Source of the DNA: Pyrobaculum sp. WP30
GTDB lineage: Archaea; Thermoproteota; Thermoprotei; Thermoproteales; Thermoproteaceae
DNA: 64,000 nt
NCBI GenBank assembly: GCA_001189275.1
Contig: CP012158.1
Coordinates: 186,001 to 250,000, forward strand
Direction: 5' to 3'
Translations under genes and position numbers: made by a program
Notes under the pieces: generated by a model
What the model saw: the letters and a program-made list of their open reading frames with translations, nothing else
What the model was told of the DNA's origin: nothing
Database searches by the model: none
In this document: positions 6,979-46,843 of the stretch, piece by piece
Layout: each line of letters begins with the position of its first letter
Position numbering within the stretch: the stretch's first letter is position 1

Positions 6979-7704
6979 CTATACGCCGCAGACGGGACAT
7001 GAGGGGTTACGCGCCACCTCCAACACGTCGAAGGCCATATGCTTCAGATCGACGACCAACAGCCTCCCGGCGAGGGCCGGCTTGCCGAGCGCCGCGTTGA
7101 ACACCTCAAGCGCCATGAGGGATGAGACGACCCCCACCGCCGGGCCGAGGACTGGGCAGAAGCCTGCTGTGCATGTGGGCAGGGACTTGAAGCGGCCGAA
7201 GAGGTCTTCGAGACAAGGCGTCGCTCTGGGCACCACCGTCGTGACGTGGCCGTACCACTCCTGCACGGCGCCGTGTACTAAAACCCTCCCGCGCCTCACC
7301 GCGGCGGCGTTGACCACATGCCTCGCCGCCCAGTTGTCCAGGGCGTCAACTGCGATGTCCACCTCCTTCAGCACCCCCTCGGCGAGGTCCGGGCTTATGG
7401 GCTCGTCCACCGGCACCACCTCCACCTCGGGGTTCACCGCCCTGAGCGCCTTGGCGGCGGCCTCGGCCTTGGGCCTCCCCACGTCTTCCGTGGTGTAGAG
7501 GATCTGGCGGTGGAGGTCTGATACAGACACGGCGTCGAAGTCCACCAGCACCACACGCCGAAAGCCGCCGCCGACCACATACCTAGCCACGAGGCTGCCG
7601 AGGCCCCCCACGCCGAACACAGCCACGGAGGTCTCCCTAATCCTCCGCTGTCCCTCCTCGCCTATTACGGGGATCTGCCTGCTGTAGCGGTCCAGCACCT
7701 TCAT
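6979..7704 (-). CDS. ThiF/MoeB/HesA-family E1-like adenylyltransferase
   Basis: The 241-residue protein begins DRYSRQIPVIGEEGQRRI, followed by FGVGGLGSLVARYV (nucleotide-binding Gly loop), the metal/ATP residues around DLHRQILY, and DALDNWAARHVVN. All are hallmarks of enzymes that adenylate the C-terminal glycine of ubiquitin-like sulfur carriers (ThiS, MoaD, SAMP). TCTAGFCP holds the candidate catalytic cysteine region, and the tail CPVC is half of the zinc site often seen in these enzymes. Likely roles are molybdopterin or thiamine sulfur transfer, tRNA thiolation or SAMP conjugation; the carrier protein is not in the window. The ATG overlaps the stop of the small gene upstream (ATGA), so the two are translationally coupled. 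Confidence 0.85.
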   Translation of the reverse strand: MKVLDRYSRQIPVIGEEGQRRIRETSVAVFGVGGLGSLVARYVVGGGFRRVVLVDFDAVSVSDLHRQILYTTEDVGRPKAEAAAKALRAVNPEVEVVPVDEPISPDLAEGVLKEVDIAVDALDNWAARHVVNAAAVRRGRVLVHGAVQEWYGHVTTVVPRATPCLEDLFGRFKSLPTCTAGFCPVLGPAVGVVSSLMALEVFNAALGKPALAGRLLVVDLKHMAFDVLEVARNPSCPVCGV

Positions 7705-7853
7705 CGCTCTTCGAGGTAGGCCGCTGCTAGGAGGATCAGCCCCGCTAGGCCAAGCAGAGCCTTCTTGAAGAAGGAGGCGCCGGCGGCGGGGCTGAGCACA
7801 AGCATAACCAGAAGACCCAGCAGGGCCAACTTCAGGGCTGAGAAGAAGCCCAT
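7701..7853 (-). CDS. Small two-helix membrane protein (50 residues), coupled to the E1-like gene
   Basis: A short frame from the ATG at 7853 encodes 50 residues. It has two hydrophobic stretches, roughly LALLGLLVMLVL and ALLGLAGLILLAAAY, separated by a short polar turn with FFKKA, and it ends EER. This predicts two membrane helices with a basic connector. The TGA overlaps the ATG of the ThiF-like gene, a strong sign that the frame is translated. The AT-rich ATATATAAGC box 19-28 bases upstream also serves the divergent phosphodiesterase gene. No homologue comes to mind. It might tether the E1-like enzyme to the membrane, which is only inference from gene order. Confidence 0.65.
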   Translation of the reverse strand: MGFFSALKLALLGLLVMLVLSPAAGASFFKKALLGLAGLILLAAAYLEER

Positions 7854-30578: not shown

Positions 30579-30869
30579 CGGCGTTTTTAAAACGTCGTGC
30601 AACATGCGCTTTACATCTGTTAAAGCGTTCAGCTGTTTCGGCGGGTTAAGTATGTAAAGCGTAGATCCAATTTATAAAACGTCGTGCAACTTCTCGGCAG
30701 ACGCCGACGCCGAGGAGAAAAACACGCAAATACACACACCACCACCCCCCACACACCAACACAAAAAACAAAACCAAAACAACCACAGCCAACAAGCCCC
30801 CGTAAGAAACCCACACACCACCACCAACAAAACTTAAAAACCCACAAAAACCAACAAAAAGAACCCCCA
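30579..30869 (+). promoter_or_regulatory. Leader of CRISPR array 1
   Basis: The 291 bases immediately before the first repeat differ at a single position (30858, A versus C) from the leader of array 2. A TATA-like box (CTATATAAAC) lies just upstream at about 30568, and a second (AATTTATAAAACG) inside at about 30669. AAAACGTCGTGCAAC occurs twice. An inverted repeat CGCTTTA...TAAAGCG occurs near 30610, with a third TAAAGCG copy near 30655. The distal half is A/C-rich. Leaders promote transcription and polarised spacer insertion; the repeated motifs are candidate protein-binding sites for Cas adaptation or regulator proteins. Confidence 0.9.
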
Positions 30870-33800
30870 GCATCTCAAATAGAGAATTGAAAGTTCTTGA
30901 GATTCTAGAGTGGAACTTAGGCTTAGTCAGGCCCTGCATCTCAAATAGAGAATTGAAAGTCTGCCCTTACGGCGTCAGCCGCCGCCGCCGCGGTGGCCAC
31001 GGGCATCTCAAATAGAGAATTGAAAGACGCGTCAAGTAGAGCCCCAGGGCAAGCACGTAGAAACCCAGATCGCATCTCAAATAGAGAATTGAAAGCTCGA
31101 CCAGGTGGTAGGCTACATCAACGGCCTAGCTAGGCTTGGGCATCTCAAATAGAGAATTGAAAGTTGCGGAATGCGTCGAGGAGGTTCTCCGCGGATATGA
31201 ACGCGCATCTCAAATAGAGAATTGAAAGGATTAGACATATTTCAAGAACCATGCAACGCGTCGGTCGTGCTGGCATCTCAAATAGAGAATTGAAAGGGTC
31301 TTCCTTGTCCACCACGTCTGCAGATGTGGAGAAGGTGCATCTCAAATAGAGAATTGAAAGTACATGGCATTTGGCCCAGATCCAGACTACATGGTATCCG
31401 GCATCTCAAATAGAGAATTGAAAGCGTCTTTGCCCCAGGCCCAGGCGGCCTAGGCGGCGGCGACCGCGCATCTCAAATAGAGAATTGAAAGCGCTGAACC
31501 CCGTCACGTTGAATTCTTTGTCTAGAGTTACCGCATCTCAAATAGAGAATTGAAAGTGTAAAGAGGAGGTGAGGGTTTCCGTCGTGAGGGTGCGCCGCAT
31601 CTCAAATAGAGAATTGAAAGATTACAGTCATCAACTTCACACGCATGCGAAATACCATGTGCATCTCAAATAGAGAATTGAAAGCCTAGCTCTTTAACGG
31701 AGTCCAGGGGTCATGTGGCAAATGTGCATCTCAAATAGAGAATTGAAAGTGCGGATGTTGCCGAGGAACTGTTGCGGCGCGAAGAAGCTGGCATCTCAAA
31801 TAGAGAATTGAAAGCCCTCGTTTCCGATGACCCGCCCGACTCCGATGAGGGCGGTGAGGCAGTTCGTGCATCTCAAATAGAGAATTGAAAGTTCATAGCG
31901 GCCACACAGGCGATCATAAACGAGGCCTTTGGCCCCCTGCATCTCAAATAGAGAATTGAAAGGCATCTTTACGGCGTCTTTACGCGCCACGCGATCAGCC
32001 TGTGGGCATCTCAAATAGAGAATTGAAAGGAGGCCCTTGACCACTACTGGTGGCGTGCCGTGCCTCTAATCAGCATCTCAAATAGAGAATTGAAAGGACG
32101 TTAAGCGCGCTACACAGCGCAGAAGTGGCGATGCACCCGCATCTCAAATAGAGAATTGAAAGGCATAATATTGTAGCTATGGTGCGCCGCAAAGAGTCCG
32201 AAAAGGCGCATCTCAAATAGAGAATTGAAAGCCTCCGCATGCTGGAGCGGGAGGGGGCCGTGCGGAGGCGCGCATCTCAAATAGAGAATTGAAAGGCTAT
32301 AGGAAACGAGCCGAGGGCAGACGAGGGGGAGTTGCGCATCTCAAATAGAGAATTGAAAGTGTAAAATTTAGGGGGTTCTCCCCCCGCCCTGATTTCGCGC
32401 ATCTCAAATAGAGAATTGAAAGTCATATGTCGATAATATGCGTTGCGTAACACCGGAGTATTTTGCATCTCAAATAGAGAATTGAAAGAAGGGCCTCCTC
32501 CGCCGCCCAGACGTATCTGTCCTCGTCCACGCATCTCAAATAGAGAATTGAAAGCTCGGCGCTGTACAGGGCTGTGGGGCTTTGGCAGGAGGAGCCGCAT
32601 CTCAAATAGAGAATTGAAAGACGAGTTGCGGCGTTGTGCCGTGTGTAAGATCGATACGTTTGCATCTCAAATAGAGAATTGAAAGAACGACGTGATAGTC
32701 GTTGCGACGCTAAGGGCGCCACAGACATCTCAAATAGAGAATTGAAAGATACGAAAACGTCGCACGAGCTTCAGGGAGGGGGTAGGGGGCATCTCAAATA
32801 GAGAATTGAAAGCTTTCCGTCTCTCAGCACAACGTGATCTGCCAACTTCTCCAGGAAGCGATCTGCATCTCAAATAGAGAATTGAAAGCTCAGCCTGCCC
32901 CACCGTCCACCGCCCCCCCACCGCCGCCTGTGCATCTCAAATAGAGAATTGAAAGAGCGGTGCTGTTAGCCACACACGTCTGCCCTACAGGTATCTGCGG
33001 CATCTCAAATAGAGAATTGAAAGCGCGTTCAGCACCTGCCTGAACCTCATGCCGTAGGGCCCGCATCTCAAATAGAGAATTGAAAGCCTGCCGCCCCTGT
33101 CTGTCCCGAAGTTGCAGTACACGCATCTCAAATAGAGAATTGAAAGAAAGTGTTCACTAGATACGGAGGGGCTGTGTGGCAGTACATGGCATCTCAAATA
33201 GAGAATTGAAAGATTGTTGTCGTTGCAGTGATGCCAGCAGAGGGGGTATGAGCGGTGCATCTCAAATAGAGAATTGAAAGGCTCAGCGCCTTGAGACAGC
33301 AGGCGCTGGTGAGGGGGCAGAGGGGGGCATCTCAAATAGAGAATTGAAAGCGCCAAAAACGCCGCAGTCGCCAGGGAGCGCCTCGACGGCATCTCAAATA
33401 GAGAATTGAAAGTCCACCTCCGTCTCAGGTGGCTTGAACTCCGGCTCTTTCGCATCTCAAATAGAGAATTGAAAGAGGCCACTGCGTCGCCTCGTTGTTA
33501 ACTCTCCACACGGTAGATGCGGCATCTCAAATAGAGAATTGAAAGAGTCATAAACCACGACGCCCAGCCGCCGCGGCGGCAGGCGCATCTCAAATAGAGA
33601 ATTGAAAGCGTGCCGTGGTTTCCAGACCTGCTGAACTCCTTACGCGTCGGGCATCTCAAATAGAGAATTGAAAGTAGCCCACACCCTCACGTAGACGTAG
33701 CCTTGCTGTATGGCATCTCAAATAGAGAATTGAAAGACTGCCATGTGGTTCGCGTAGTAGAGCTCCGAGTTCGCGCATCTCAAATAGAGAATTGAAAGGG

Positions 33801-35462
33801 ATTCTGTCTATCGGGATCTTGGTGGGGAGGGAGTAGTACCGCATCTCAAATAGAGAATTGAAAGCTCCACCTCCTCGCAGAGCTCCCTGTGTCTCCACTC
33901 CTCCGCCGCATCTCAAATAGAGAATTGAAAGAATGATGAAGTCTTTGAAGAAGCCGCTCCCCCTCCTTATCTTTGCATCTCAAATAGAGAATTGAAAGGC
34001 GCCTTTTCTGTAAAGCGCGGCCGCCATTCATCTGCGAGCATCTCAAATAGAGAATTGAAAGCGCTAGCGCGTTTAAACACGGCTGAGTCGTTGTGCCGCA
34101 AGGCACGCATCTCAAATAGAGAATTGAAAGAAGTTCAGCTTGCGCAAGGCCACTACATGTGAAGGCGACGCGTGGCATCTCAAATAGAGAATTGAAAGAA
34201 ACCCTTCCGACGCGGACAGGCTGGCAAATGCTGAGTATTGAGCATCTCAAATAGAGAATTGAAAGTGGCCCTCTCGCCTGGCGTCCGCCCCACGCCGCGC
34301 GTGCGTCTCGGCATCTCAAATAGAGAATTGAAAGAGCCATCGCCAGCACCTCGTCCACCTTCGTAACCGTGGTCTCGCATCTCAAATAGAGAATTGAAAG
34401 AGTTGAAGCGGCTCACCGCCTGTAGCCAAATCTCCTGTGCATCTCAAATAGAGAATTGAAAGCGTTATTACGTCCTCCACAGTGCCGCCGTTTTGCCACA
34501 CCTCAGCATCTCAAATAGAGAATTGAAGGCAGTAGTCATCAATCGGCACGAACAGGTACGCATCCGCTGGGCATCTCAAATAGAGAATTGAAAGCCTCTT
34601 AAACGCCGCGGCGGCTGTTTGCGCCAGCTCGGCCAGGCATCTCAAATAGAGAATTGAAAGCTCCCCCCTGCGCTCGCACCTGACGCGCTTCACCATCCTG
34701 GCGATGCCGGCATCTCAAATAGAGAATTGAAAGACTGAGTCCATAGACCTGCCACTCCACGTCGCCATGCATCTCAAATAGAGAATTGAAAGGTAGGCCT
34801 CTCCACGGCTAAGCGCGTCGACTACAGCTGCATCTCAAATAGAGAATTGAAAGAGCTAGCTAAGACGGTGGTGAACTACATATACAACTTGCCCGACGAA
34901 GCATCTCAAATAGAGAATTGAAAGATGACGTTGTGGCAGTACTGCCCGGCCAGTACGTGGTGCTGGCATCTCAAATAGAGAATTGAAAGGCGAAGGCGAT
35001 GGTGACGAAGGCCCTCACGTCGCTTTCGGTCAGCATCTCAAATAGAGAATTGAAAGCTCAGGACCGTGTAGGCCTTGGCCCCATTGGGGTACTTCACTAT
35101 GGCATCTCAAATAGAGAATTGAAAGATAATCATAGCTCCCTAACCGACAGTGGTACCGCGTCGGCCGGCATCTCAAATAGAGAATTGAAAGGTATCCTTA
35201 TGGCAATTTGCTTAGCAACCTCCGGGATTATTGCGCATCTCAAATAGAGAATTGAAAGGCACGTTCCACGCCGCTTACCACCTCAGCGGCGGCGACGTGA
35301 GGGCATCTCAAATAGAGAATTGAAAGTTTCGCACACGTCTTGTCTAGCGTTGCATTTGACAAGTTTGACGTGCATCTCAAATAGAGAATTGAAAGCATAT
35401 ATTCACTTTATCTGCAGTCATGCCGTCTACGGAGAAGCGCATCTCAAATAGAGAATTGAAAC
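30870..35462 (+). CRISPR. CRISPR array 1, about 70 repeats
   Basis: A 24-base repeat (GCATCTC...GAATTGAAAG) recurs about 70 times with 69 unique-looking spacers averaging 42 bases. The terminal ATTGAAAG matches the 8-base 5' handle of type I-A crRNAs, and with the leader it shows transcription on the plus strand. Most repeats are identical. Exceptions are near 32726 (ACATCTC start), near 34506 (ending GAAGG), and the last at 35439 (ending GAAAC), the usual decay at the leader-distal end. The array shares repeat and leader with array 2, which adjoins the cas genes, so both should be served by the same Cas6 and Cascade proteins. Short open frames inside are repeat artefacts. Confidence 0.98.
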
Positions 35463-42214: not shown

Positions 42215-42505
42215 CGGCGTTTTTAAAACGTCGTGCAACATGCGCTTTACATCTGTTAAAGCGTTCAGCTGTTTCGGCGGGTTAAGTATGTAAAGCGTAG
42301 ATCCAATTTATAAAACGTCGTGCAACTTCTCGGCAGACGCCGACGCCGAGGAGAAAAACACGCAAATACACACACCACCACCCCCCACACACCAACACAA
42401 AAAACAAAACCAAAACAACCACAGCCAACAAGCCCCCGTAAGAAACCCACACACCACCACCAACAAAACTTAAAAACCCACAAAAACCAACAACAAGAAC
42501 CCCCA
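42215..42505 (+). promoter_or_regulatory. Leader of CRISPR array 2
   Basis: This leader is identical to the leader of array 1 over 291 bases except position 42494 (C instead of A). A TATA-like box (TCTATATAAAT) lies just upstream near 42203. The same double AAAACGTCGTGCAAC motif and CGCTTTA...TAAAGCG inverted repeat are present. Sequences further upstream diverge, so the duplicated unit starts at about the TATA box. Confidence 0.9.
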
Positions 42506-43606
42506 GCATCTCAAATAGAGAATTGAAAGATGGGTCTGATTTGGAAATCATCTCAGAGCCCAAGGTCGCGGCATCTCAAATAGAGAATTGAAAGGCCAGC
42601 TCCTGCAACGCCACCGGTATCACATCTAACTGTATGTGCATCTCAAATAGAGAATTGAAAGAACGTATACGTTATGACTAGATACCGCTCTGGTCGCTGA
42701 TACGCCGCATCTCAAATAGAGAATTGAAAGGGCGCACTTACCCACGGCGCACCCAAAGTGCAGGTCTACGCATCTCAAATAGAGAATTGAAAGCTATGTG
42801 GAGGGCGGCTGTGGTCTTCCCACTGCCCGGATCGCCCAGGAGAACAAGCATCTCAAATAGAGAATTGAAAGGCCCTTCAGGGGCGGGTCAGGACTTGAGA
42901 CACGGCGCATGTTGCATCTCAAATAGAGAATTGAAAGTAGGGTAATAACGAAGGGAGAAAAAAGGGTGGAGTTTTAGGCAAGCATCTCAAATAGAGAATT
43001 GAAAGGTTGCGACAGACATATCGCCTGAGGAGGTGGCATGACCGGCATCTCAAATAGAGAATTGAAAGCCTCCGAGGACGCCGCCAGGAACGCCGCCACC
43101 TTATATCCCGCGCATCTCAAATAGAGAATTGAAAGATCAGCGCATCCGTCAAGTACTGCACCTCAACTTCGACAACGTGCATCTCAAATAGAGAATTGAA
43201 AGTTTCCGCCATCGCCGACAGCGTTCTGGAGCGCGTGCGCCATCTGCATCTCAAATAGAGAATTGAAAGTGACATTGATGAGCTGAGGAAACAAGCACAG
43301 GGATGGGTCGAGAAGTTGCATCTCAAATAGAGAATTGAAAGGCGAGACACCACACCGACATCTTCCCAATCACGTATTCTTCTGCATCTCAAATAGAGAA
43401 TTGAAAGCAACTTCTTGGCAAGCGCCGTGCCGCCGTCTACCGAAACCGTGGCCTCAAATAGAGAATTGAAAGCAACCGCCTTTGTCGGTCACGTATTCCA
43501 TTGTGAACGTGGTTTGGCATCTCAAATAGAGAATTGAAAGCTCCTCCAGCCGCCAAGGCCAGGCTGTGGAGGTACGACGCAGGTATCTCAAATAGAGAAT
43601 TGAAAG
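42506..43606 (+). CRISPR. CRISPR array 2, 17 repeats
   Basis: Same 24-base repeat as array 1, 17 copies, with 16 spacers averaging about 43 bases. The fifteenth repeat lacks two bases (GCCTCAAAT instead of GCATCTCAAAT) and the last begins GTATCTC, marking the old end. Spacer 5 (42794-42847, 54 bases, unusually long) reads on its reverse strand as LLGDPGSGKTTAALHI, a Walker A motif, so its protospacer lies in a P-loop ATPase gene. The array ends 46 bases before the cas4 coding end, and is the one physically linked to the cas genes. Confidence 0.97.
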
Positions 43607-43652
43607 CTCTATCCAGCTATATGGCTTCTATTGTTGTTGGTGTTGTGGCGCA

Positions 43653-44195
43653 CTATTTGCGGTACCAGCATCCGGGGCATTTGTTGGGGTGTGGGCGTGG
43701 TTGTGGGGTGTGTCCTGTGTATATCTGGCGGATTTTGTCGGCGGTGTAGAGGACTAGGGTTTTGAGGTCTTGGGTGAGGGGTATCTCGGCGGTTTCGCCG
43801 GTTTCGGCGTAGTAGATGTAGCCTCTCTGGACTGCCTTGCCGTAGTGGGCCTGGGCGGCGAGCATGTAGGCGCCTAGTTGGGCTTTGTGGGGGGTTGGGA
43901 CGCGGCGGGGTTTGGTGGTGGTTTTTACCTCTAGTGGGGCTGGTCTGCCGTCTATGATGAGGACTGCGTCTATGACGCCGCAGAAGCCTGCCCCTCTGAG
44001 CTGGACTGAGTGTTCCACGGCCTCTGCGCCGAGGGCCTTCGCCACGGCTTCGACGGCCTCTTTCTGTGTTTCTTTGCCTTTTTTCATCCTCTCGGTGGGG
44101 GGCTCGGCGAGGCCCGCTATTACGTAGTAGGCGGCGGCTGGGCAGTAGAGGTACTGCCGTATCAGCGAGGGGTTAATGCAAGGCGGGGCCGTCAT
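43653..44195 (-). CDS. cas4: Cas4 nuclease of the adaptation module, truncated by a nonsense codon
   Basis: Cas4 is a RecB-like, iron-sulfur exonuclease that trims and selects prespacers with Cas1-Cas2. The first cluster cysteine is in LIRQYLYCPAAAYYV. The nuclease core has GVIDAVLIIDGRPAPLEVKT (Asp and ExK) and HKAQLGAYMLA (QxxxY). The C-terminus reads KCPGCWYRK, then TAG (43653-43655), then TGC. The family pattern CPGCxYRxxC therefore places a stop exactly at the residue before the fourth cysteine. Reading on would add about 11 codons to a second TAG at 43617. Cluster assembly should be impaired. It overlaps cas2 by 23 bases. Confidence 0.85.
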   Translation of the reverse strand: MTAPPCINPSLIRQYLYCPAAAYYVIAGLAEPPTERMKKGKETQKEAVEAVAKALGAEAVEHSVQLRGAGFCGVIDAVLIIDGRPAPLEVKTTTKPRRVPTPHKAQLGAYMLAAQAHYGKAVQRGYIYYAETGETAEIPLTQDLKTLVLYTADKIRQIYTGHTPQPRPHPNKCPGCWYRK

Positions 44196-44451
44196 GTCTG
44201 GGGGGCGGGATGGAGCCTATTCTGATCATTGTGTCTAGCGTCTTTTTGTCTATTTTGAGGATTATGACGTCTGCGTTGGCGTTTTTTATGACGCGTCTCA
44301 ACCTCTCGGCGAGCTCCTTCACCAGCGCGGGCGGGAGCCGGCCCACGTAGGCGGACTTTTGAACTCTGGCGAGGCCGAAGGCTTTTAGGGTCTCTGCAAC
44401 TTTGTTCCTCACGTCGTCTTCCGTCACGTCGTAGACCACCACTAAGTACAT
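44173..44451 (-). CDS. cas2: CRISPR-associated Cas2
   Basis: The 92-residue ferredoxin-fold protein forms the central dimer of the Cas1-Cas2 integrase. It starts YLVVVYDVTEDDVRNKVAET with the conserved Asp, continues LARVQKSAYVGRLPPALVKE, and carries the final strand DVIILKIDK. It overlaps cas1 upstream by 10 bases and cas4 downstream by 23 bases, indicating one co-translated adaptation operon read leftward. Confidence 0.93.
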   Translation of the reverse strand: MYLVVVYDVTEDDVRNKVAETLKAFGLARVQKSAYVGRLPPALVKELAERLRRVIKNANADVIILKIDKKTLDTMIRIGSIPPPRHDGPALH

Positions 44452-45326
44452 AGGGCCTTGGCCAGGGCCCGCGCCTCGCGGTGTATCTCCGCCGAGACGG
44501 GCCTCTTGGCGGCCGAGAACTCCTCGAGCACGGCGGCCGCGACGGCGAGGCGCGAGGCGTGGGTGAGGAGACCGTCTTTTGTCTCCAGCCTGTGCCTCAT
44601 CTGGGCCACCACGGCGTCTACCCGGGGCCTCCACTGCTCCATGAAGTCCAAGACGAGGGAGGGCCTCCCCGACTTGTCTACGTGGAGGAACCCAACGTAG
44701 GGGTCCAGCCCAGCCAGCAGTAGGGATTTGAAGCAGAGGGTCTTGAGGATGCCGTAGCCGTAGTTCAGCCCGGCGTTTACTGGGTCCCTCCCTTCTTGGT
44801 CTCTGCCGGGGAAGCCGGTCACCTCTCTGTAGGCGGCCCAGTAGGCCTCCGCCGCCGCGGCCTCGGCCTCCATCACCTTGTGCGGGGTGTCCGCCTTGGC
44901 GAGGGCCTCCTGGGCGGCGCGGATGGCATCGACGTAGTCGGCGTACCGCTGGAGCCTCCGGCGCCAGGACCTTACGTTCTCCAGCTGGCCCCGGATCTTG
45001 AGCCAGACCCACCTCTTGGCGGTTTCCAGCCCCCTCCCGTCGAGGGCGGCTTGGTACTGGCACCTCCTCTTGGCGCCGGTGGCGTCTCCCACAGGTCTCA
45101 TGAAGACGCCTAGGGGCCCGCCCCTCTGGTCGAAGACCGCCACCACGGCGCCTGCCCTGAGGAGCGCCCTCAGCGCCTTGGTGGTTATGGAGATGCCGCC
45201 GGTCAGCAGAAGCACCTCGTCTACCTCGTGTAGCGGGTACTGCCTCGCGCCGTCTTTCCCCTCCACCACCAGGAGGCCCTTCCTGGCCCTGATCCTGGTG
45301 CCGTAGGTGGCCACTACGATCTGCAT
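44442..45326 (-). CDS. cas1: CRISPR-associated integrase Cas1
   Basis: The 294-residue protein has the Cas1 N-terminal beta domain (IRARKGLLVVEGKDGARQYP, VDEVLLLTGGISITTKAL) and the helical catalytic domain. The active-site Glu is in VMEAEAAAAEAYWAAY, the His in GFLHVDKSGRPSLVLD, with the following FMEQWRP. It integrates spacers at the leader end of both arrays. The ATG at 45326 starts 13 bases inside the csa1 3' end. There is no sign of damage, unlike cas4. Confidence 0.95.
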   Translation of the reverse strand: MQIVVATYGTRIRARKGLLVVEGKDGARQYPLHEVDEVLLLTGGISITTKALRALLRAGAVVAVFDQRGGPLGVFMRPVGDATGAKRRCQYQAALDGRGLETAKRWVWLKIRGQLENVRSWRRRLQRYADYVDAIRAAQEALAKADTPHKVMEAEAAAAEAYWAAYREVTGFPGRDQEGRDPVNAGLNYGYGILKTLCFKSLLLAGLDPYVGFLHVDKSGRPSLVLDFMEQWRPRVDAVVAQMRHRLETKDGLLTHASRLAVAAAVLEEFSAAKRPVSAEIHREARALAKALCT

Positions 45327-46186
45327 ATGTGGTAGAAGGGGCAGGTCTTGGGGCACTGGGGCGGGGTGCCGGGGTCTCTGGCGGAGGCCACCACGTCCAC
45401 CGCCTCGTCTCTCGCCTCGAGGAACTTGAGGCGGGGCCCCTCGCCGAGGTGGTAGGCCTGGGCTCTGTACTCCACGGAGCCGTCCACCCAGATCTGGACG
45501 TGTATGCCGTAGTCTATGGGCATGCCGTACTCCGCCTCAATGGCCATGGCGTAGCCCGCCAGCGCCGCGTCGACGTTTTGAGAGGGGCCGAATTTGAACT
45601 CCACAACGGCGCCCAGCGCCACGCCGTCTGCCACCACGTAGCCGAGGCCGAGGGGTGCGCCGTCTACCGCCACCTGTGTGTGTATGGGCGCGGCGTAGAA
45701 GGCGGCTGAGTCCCTGCCCCAGGCGAGGCCGGAGGCCAGTACGTAGTGGTACTCGCCGAGGAGCCTCGCCGCCACGTATCTATAAAGCGCCTCAGCCTTG
45801 GGCTTGAACTCCTCCGGCACAGCCTCGCCGGGGCCGGACATGGGGACACCTGCGTAGACAAACCTTCTGAAGTCCTCCAGCGCCTTGAACAAGGCGGCGT
45901 GGAGGGCGGAGCCCTCTAGGAGGGGCTTCGCGGGCTGGGGCCTCTCTCTGAGCACGTACTTTAGGTATAGGTTTCTGCCGGTGGGGCAGTAGCCGTAGGC
46001 GAAGTCAGACAGCGCGATGCCGAGGTGAGCAGGAGGCCTCACCGGCGGCTTGTCAAAGGACCACCCCCTCAGCTCAGGGGGCGTGTCGGGCTGGCCGCCT
46101 GTTATGCGCACCCGGCGGAGGAGTCTGGCTATCTCCATGAGGGTTAGCACGAAGTTTTGATCAACTCCCCGTATTATCCGTGACAT
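45314..46186 (-). CDS. csa1: Csa1, Cas4-related type I-A adaptation protein
   Basis: The 290-residue RecB-like protein has the nuclease core as AALAGYAMAIEAEYG preceded by LGAVVEFKFGPS (ExK), with cluster cysteines at YGYCPTGRNLYL and near the end in CPKTCPFYHIC. Csa1 forms part of the type I-A adaptation complex with Cas1, Cas2 and Cas4. All four cysteine positions seem present, so Csa1 might partly substitute for the damaged Cas4. It is the first gene of the leftward operon and diverges from csa3 across a 42-base spacer with a palindrome. Confidence 0.85.
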   Translation of the reverse strand: MSRIIRGVDQNFVLTLMEIARLLRRVRITGGQPDTPPELRGWSFDKPPVRPPAHLGIALSDFAYGYCPTGRNLYLKYVLRERPQPAKPLLEGSALHAALFKALEDFRRFVYAGVPMSGPGEAVPEEFKPKAEALYRYVAARLLGEYHYVLASGLAWGRDSAAFYAAPIHTQVAVDGAPLGLGYVVADGVALGAVVEFKFGPSQNVDAALAGYAMAIEAEYGMPIDYGIHVQIWVDGSVEYRAQAYHLGEGPRLKFLEARDEAVDVVASARDPGTPPQCPKTCPFYHICRS

Positions 46187-46228: not shown

Positions 46229-46843
46229 ATGCGCCTCGCCGTCACGCTCAGCTTTGAGAGCACTCTGGTGATTAGGGCCGTGGCGAGGCTCCCCCGTGCC
46301 GACGACTACGTCCTCCTGCGGGCGCAGACCGGCACAGAGGGCGACGTCAAGTCCGCGGAGACCGCCGCCGACGTCATAAAGGCGCTGGGGAGGGGGCGGG
46401 AGTTCGCCGTTGACATCCGCGACTTGGCGAGGGGGATAGAGCAGCTAGCCTCGCTCGACTTCGACGCGGTGGCGCTGGCAGGCGGGCCCAGGTCGCTGGT
46501 CCTCTTGGCTTTTGTGGCGGCTGCGCTGAGGGGCGCCAAGATCTACGTAGTTCCGGAGTACGCGGCTGACCCCTTCGACGCGACTGCTCTGGCCGCCGCC
46601 TTCAAGCTCACCTGCCTAACCCCGGCGAAGCTCAGAGTCTTGGCTGAGGCCGACGGCCCAGCCGACGAGGTGGCGCGGAGACTCGGCATTGACAGCTCCA
46701 CAGCTTACAGGCATCTGGAGGACCTGGCGGAGAGGGATCTCGTAAGGGTTGAGGGCAGTAGGTCGAAGACGTATAGAACCGATACGGTAATTAGGACCCT
46801 TGCCAAAATGTTTTTGCAAAGGTCTACACAGCACCGATATTAG
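46229..46843 (+). CDS. csa3: Csa3, CARF-wHTH regulator of the cas locus
   Basis: The 204-residue protein has an N-terminal CARF/Rossmann domain (LAVTLSFESTLVIRAVARL, AVALAGGPRSLVLLAFVAA) and a C-terminal winged helix (LTPAKLRVLAEADGPADEVA, RRLGIDSSTAYRHLEDLAER). In Sulfolobus, Csa3 proteins bind cas and leader promoters and respond to cyclic oligoadenylate. Position between the two divergent cas operons supports the same role. A perfect palindrome immediately upstream is a likely binding site. Fewer than 50 bases separate it from the interference operon start. Confidence 0.88.
   Translation: MRLAVTLSFESTLVIRAVARLPRADDYVLLRAQTGTEGDVKSAETAADVIKALGRGREFAVDIRDLARGIEQLASLDFDAVALAGGPRSLVLLAFVAAALRGAKIYVVPEYAADPFDATALAAAFKLTCLTPAKLRVLAEADGPADEVARRLGIDSSTAYRHLEDLAERDLVRVEGSRSKTYRTDTVIRTLAKMFLQRSTQHRY

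What the first reader, a model, noticed from the sequence alone, without database searches (positions are those of the whole stretch)
43617..43655. Nonsense codon in cas4 removes the fourth iron-sulfur cysteine
The Cas4 tail reads KCPGCWYRK, TAG, then a Cys codon. The family motif CPGCxYRxxC shows that the TAG replaces the residue just before the last cluster cysteine, most simply TAC or TAT to TAG. The remaining gene and all other adaptation genes look intact. If real, prespacer trimming is impaired and Csa1 may compensate, or spacer acquisition has stopped.
Basis: partly seen in the sequence, partly recalled or inferred. Interest (0 to 1): 0.65.

Follow-up and report, generated by a model that had tools for sequence, protein, structure and literature searches.

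The report
Early stop codon in archaeal cas4
One gene of an archaeon's CRISPR memory-making machinery carries an early stop codon just before its last metal-binding residue; it looks like an ordinary recent mutation or a sequencing error, not a new mechanism.

Summary
On the minus strand the cas4 ORF (43653-44195) ends KCPGCWYRK-TAG and the next codon is Cys. All nine orthologues found in the family read Trp, Tyr or Ile there, then Cys, then ten residues, and stop where the second TAG lies here (43617). None ends early. The 11 codons behind the TAG still match the relatives' tails about as well as those tails match one another, and the gene is not evolving faster than its sister's. So the stop is very young, or an assembly error. 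TAG is the commonest stop in the window and PylS is far below cut-off, so recoding is unlikely. The product should lack its Fe-S cluster; whether it is dead is open, because published Cys mutants are insoluble in SSO0001 but keep nuclease activity in Pcal_0546 and SSO1391. Csa1 and a solo Cas4 are intact. This is the genome's only cas1 module, so lower adaptation fidelity is plausible but unshown; nothing shows that acquisition stopped. Broken csa1 or cas4 copies are frequent in this family, mostly in second modules. Interest is low.

The parts
43653..44195 (-). cas4 ORF as encoded: 180 aa, N-terminal Cys18, D76, E89-V-K91, Q106..Y110, Cys173 and Cys176; ends at TAG
   Evidence: PF01930 over cut-off; residue numbers counted on the translation
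43653..43655 (-). in-frame TAG at codon 181, where the nine relatives have Trp (3), Tyr (5) or Ile (1)
43617..43652 (-). untranslated remainder of cas4: Cys codon 182, ten more residues, second TAG at 43617-43619, the family's normal end
44173..44451 (-). cas2 (92 aa), open
   Evidence: (60-80% identity to relatives)
44442..45356 (-). cas1 (304 aa), open; the only cas1 match in the genome
45314..46186 (-). csa1 (cas4', 290 aa), open, C-terminal QCPKTCPFYHIC intact
46229..46843 (+). csa3-like regulator with HTH domain, divergent from csa1 (the name csa3 is from my knowledge of such loci)
   Evidence: HTH domains; 42-73% identity to the gene in the same place in relatives
42506..43606 (+). CRISPR array 2, 17 repeats, 24-nt unit GCATCTCAAATAGAGAATTGAAAG; its trailer end faces cas4 and stops 10 bp from the second TAG
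30870..35462 (+). CRISPR array 1, same repeat, 69 pattern matches plus one variant repeat

Best explanation
This is the ordinary CRISPR-associated cas4 gene of the csa1-cas1-cas2-cas4 adaptation operon, carrying a very recent nonsense change in the last 12 codons. Shown: the TAG, its position, the intact remainder, and the absence of older decay. Inferred: the product cannot assemble its Fe-S cluster because the fourth ligand is missing, and it has lost the last 12 residues; like SSO0001, and unlike Pcal_0546, it lacks the N-terminal extension proposed to hold the nuclease core together without the cluster, so it is probably unstable or weak. Adaptation would then rest on Cas1-Cas2 with Csa1, with less exact definition of one prespacer end (PAM, length or orientation), rather than stop.
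For: TAG and tail. Nine of nine orthologues read through to Cys and end at the same distal place. In 46 class loci examined, own is the only one with a stop between the third and fourth Cys. Tail still under coding constraint. No acceleration of own Cas4 against sister G007 (own-only/G007-only changes 9/20, 11/15, 10/17, 8/16 and 15/8 with five outgroups) and dN/dS 0.145 with G007. Such lesions are usual in this family: G006 second cas4 with 1 TGA and 2 TAG, csa1 in pieces in G000, G002, G003, G011, G012 and G014. Cluster loss in Cys mutants of Pcal_0546 and SSO1391 and insolubility of SSO0001 mutants: passages of PMC4176176 and PMC3466216. Own protein has 17 residues before the N-terminal Cys against 63 in Pcal_0546 (Cys64).
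Against: Reads were not available, so the base itself is unverified. Cys-to-Ala mutants of two family members keep nuclease activity, so loss of function does not follow automatically. No adaptation assay, protospacer or PAM evidence exists for this strain. The absence of any decay also fits a base-call error or a stop that is tolerated or read through.
Confidence: 0.6

Rival explanations
1. Sequencing, consensus or assembly error: the organism's cas4 is intact and the TAG does not exist.
For: A single wrong base would be enough; the tail is undecayed and the body under constraint, which an error explains perfectly.
Against: The genome is one contig with estimated completeness 99.84 and contamination 0.19, and every other cas ORF of the cluster in the window is open, so the local error rate is not visibly high. 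Broken adaptation genes are also common in complete relatives.
Confidence: 0.25
2. The TAG is a tolerated end: a cluster-free, 12-residue-shorter Cas4 still works in the Cas1-Cas2-Csa1 complex.
For: Pcal_0546 and SSO1391 Cys-to-Ala proteins have wild-type nuclease level (PMC4176176). Catalytic residues are retained.
Against: Four cysteines are described as present in all Cas4 family members (PMC5704561); all 9 orthologues keep the tail; SSO0001 Cys mutants are insoluble or inactive. Point changes are also milder than loss of 12 residues.
Confidence: 0.11
3. Stop-codon readthrough or a TAG-decoding tRNA lets a fraction of ribosomes make full-length Cas4.
For: The sequence behind the TAG is conserved as protein, with the family's normal length.
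Against: TAG is the commonest stop in the window (27 of 49 ORFs of 150 aa or more; 7 of the 11 cas-cluster ORFs listed, cas4 included). The family's own end here is also TAG, and reading both would carry the frame into the CRISPR array (next non-TAG stop at 43389). PylS scores 17.5 bits at best against a cut-off of 178.15. ARAGORN names no CUA tRNA, but it resolved only part of the tRNA loci.
Confidence: 0.04

Closest known systems
CAS-Cas4 of the Pyrobaculum type I submodule cas4'-1-2-4 (PMC3396285)
   Same: Gene order csa1-cas1-cas2-cas4 with the divergent regulator in 9 of 9 relatives fetched; CRISPR repeats facing the 3' end of cas4 in 8 of 9 (G014 has them on the other strand)
   Different: Last Fe-S Cys and ten following residues lie behind a TAG
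Pcal_0546 (4R5Q) and SSO0001, solo Cas4 nucleases
   Same: RecB-type core and the Cys pattern C...C-x2-C-x5-C
   Different: Those proteins are complete; Pcal_0546 has a longer N-terminus; the likely counterpart of Pcal_0546 here is the intact solo gene at genome 690 kb
Decayed cas4 of a second module in G006 (coordinates fit P. oguniense, Table A1 of PMC3396285)
   Same: cas4 of an adaptation module carrying in-frame stops
   Different: Three stops there (1 TGA, 2 TAG) in a second module; a single terminal TAG here in the only module with cas1

Membership tests
Cas4 (PF01930, CAS-Cas4) | Sequence homology over the domain, above the curated cut-off | tested here: met
   54.6 bits against cut-off 22.7
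Cas4 (PF01930, CAS-Cas4) | PD-(D/E)XK residues D, E-x-K, Q...Y | tested here: met
   D76, E89/K91, Q106/Y110 read and aligned; motif list from PMC4176176
Cas4 (PF01930, CAS-Cas4) | Four conserved cysteines, one N-terminal and three C-terminal | tested here: not met
   Encoded product has three of four; the fourth is behind the TAG. It is a cas4 orthologue by descent, not a complete Cas4.
Cas4 (PF01930, CAS-Cas4) | Lies in an operon with cas1 and cas2 | tested here: met
Cas4 (PF01930, CAS-Cas4) | Binds an Fe-S cluster and trims prespacers | not testable with these tools
   needs protein
Pyrrolysine or other TAG recoding | PylS homologue above cut-off | tested here: not met
   best 17.5 bits, cut-off 178.15
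Pyrrolysine or other TAG recoding | tRNA with CUA anticodon | tested here: inconclusive
   none named, but ARAGORN left 10 of 26 loci without a tRNA
Pyrrolysine or other TAG recoding | TAG avoided as an ordinary stop | tested here: not met
   27 of 49 long ORFs end in TAG

The most novel reading that the evidence does not exclude
The strain makes a cluster-free Cas4, or a mixture of short and read-through forms, and adapts with it. It would be a natural test of whether the Fe-S staple is needed for prespacer processing when Csa1 is present.
Probability: 0.07. Interest if true: 0.5.

Novelty: new member of a known kind. Interest (0 to 1): 0.2.

Why it matters
If the base is real, this strain is a ready natural cas4 C-terminal truncation in a genome with one adaptation module and an intact Csa1. 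New spacers from it could show what Cas4's cluster-bearing tail adds beyond Csa1. Otherwise it is one more broken adaptation gene in a family where such losses are frequent.

Tried and rejected
TAG recoding: rejected on stop usage and PylS. A natural short Cas4 in relatives: rejected, 0 of 9. Old pseudogene: rejected, as there is no decay and no acceleration against the sister. A back-up adaptation module elsewhere: one cas1 only; a second csa1 at genome 512 kb is in pieces. PAM evidence from spacers: blastn of both arrays against the phage collection found nothing, and exact 20-base pieces of four leader-end spacers (4 of about 85) found nothing in viral contigs. The named-genome scan gave one distant locus only and says that near genomes may be left out, so it did not name the organism; a paper search for the genome's sequencing method listed nothing useful. 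One search read several minus-strand matches on the wrong strand and was replaced. In one search the csa1 row for G001 and the cas1 row for G015 were cut short by the script and were not used. Structure prediction was not run: a single sequence gives a poor model, and the relatives' proteins come from sources outside the tool's stated list.

Full report
Observation. The minus-strand frame of cas4 reads ...AACAAATGCCCCGGATGCTGGTACCGCAAA TAG TGC GCC..., so the ORF stops at 43653-43655 and the next codon is Cys. Reading on gives CATTPTTIEAI and a second TAG at 43617-43619. The product is Cas4 by Pfam, and the genome search flags one in-frame TAG in this match.

Relatives. Among 19 genomes of the family (own included) 15 had a match. 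Nine besides own carry the close orthologue (56-75% identity): G007, G009, G003, G001, G006, G002, G014, G015 and G005. At the TAG codon they have Trp (G007, G005, G015), Tyr (G009, G003, G001, G002, G014) or Ile (G006); then all nine have Cys, ten residues and a stop at the same place. None ends early. For the wider class I looked at 46 loci (not all of the 75 matches listed; L005 and L063 are the same gene). A script found the C-terminal Cys pattern in 43, own included with its TAG. The other three have it by eye: L043 and L071 and L021, a copy with three upstream stops. Own is the only one with a stop between the third and fourth Cys. PMC5704561 (passages seen) states that all Cas4 family members have four conserved cysteines.

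Age. The tail is conserved as protein (mean 4.9 of 11 identical to the nine relatives; relatives with one another 5.2; random control 0.54, 0 of 14,451). Own Cas4 has no consistent excess of private changes against G007 (fewer with four outgroups, more with one), and its dN/dS with G007 is 0.145, in the range of cas1 (0.178), csa1 (0.115) and cas2 (0.072); dS is near saturation in several pairs, so these ratios are rough. Own cas4 against G009 and G001 gives 0.311 and 0.289, higher than the other cas4 pairs printed (0.16-0.21); I read this as noise in dS, but it is the one hint of relaxed constraint. The stop is therefore young or unreal.

Context. The order csa1-cas1-cas2-cas4 with the divergent regulator is kept in 9 of 9 relatives fetched, and CRISPR repeats face the 3' end of cas4 in 8 of 9. 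This matches the submodule described for Pyrobaculum (PMC3396285, section 11 and passages). cas1 is single in the genome. csa1 in the window is complete; a second csa1 at genome 512 kb is in two pieces without its C-terminus. A solo Cas4 at genome 690 kb is open with its cysteines. Lesions in such modules are frequent: csa1 pieces in G000, G002, G003, G011, G012 and G014 (G011 and G012 are drafts, and contig ends may explain some), and a decayed cas4 in G006. Of 75 Cas4 matches listed in the class search, 3 contain stops: own, G006 and G071.

Recoding. In the window 27 of 49 ORFs of at least 150 aa end in TAG, as do cas1, csa1, csa3, csa5, cas7 and cas5; the family end of cas4 itself is TAG here (cas5 and csa3 are my labels, not Pfam's). 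PylS is far below cut-off. tRNA finding was incomplete: ARAGORN left 10 of 26 loci without a tRNA, so absence of a CUA tRNA is not proved.

Consequence. PMC3466216 (passages) reports that each Cys-to-Ala change in SSO0001 gave insoluble protein. PMC4176176 (passages) reports that Cys mutants of Pcal_0546 and SSO1391 lose the cluster but keep nuclease activity, credited for Pcal_0546 to an extra beta-sheet that includes N-terminal residues 39-44; SSO1391 mutants were weaker in one unwinding assay. Own Cas4 has only 17 residues before its N-terminal Cys, so it should lack that part and resemble SSO0001; this is inference. PMC6519985 (passages) summarises in vivo work: cas4 deletion lowers adaptation and lets in spacers without the right PAM, and in P. 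furiosus two Cas4 proteins define the two prespacer ends. With Csa1 intact here, reduced fidelity is more likely than arrest.

Spacers. The two arrays hold about 85 spacers with clean leader-end repeats. No protospacer was found, so no statement about recent PAM use is possible.

Print. A search for Cas4 with 'premature stop codon' listed 11 papers, none of them by title on an archaeal cas4 (listing only). Verdict: a correct and careful observation, most likely a recent nonsense allele or a base error, of low general interest.

Noticed in passing
30580-30869 and 42216-42505: The leaders of the two CRISPR arrays are nearly identical over about 290 bases (about one mismatch) although the arrays share no spacer, suggesting recent duplication or conversion of the leader.
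   Followed up: partly
43607-43616: Only 10 bp separate the last repeat of array 2 from the family end of cas4, whereas the first repeat lies about 60-140 bp behind cas4 in G007, G006 and G005; possible trailer-end deletion.
   Followed up: partly
L114 about 7291-7843 (genome 512290-512842): A second csa1 in two pieces without the C-terminal cysteines: remnant of another adaptation module. A repeated peptide in an ORF at L114 8363-8611 hints at CRISPR repeats beside it, not tested.
   Followed up: partly
L108 5784-6435: In G015 the cas1 match skips query residues 146-230 with almost no DNA between the pieces: apparent internal deletion in cas1.
   Followed up: no
34443-34574: Array 1 holds one variant repeat ending GAAGG, so a simple pattern search reports one 108-base spacer.
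   Followed up: yes
L021 (G006:C1:941232-941705): cas4 of a second module with 1 TGA and 2 TAG; the published gene table lists cas4', cas1 and cas2 there but no cas4, which the decay would explain.
   Followed up: partly
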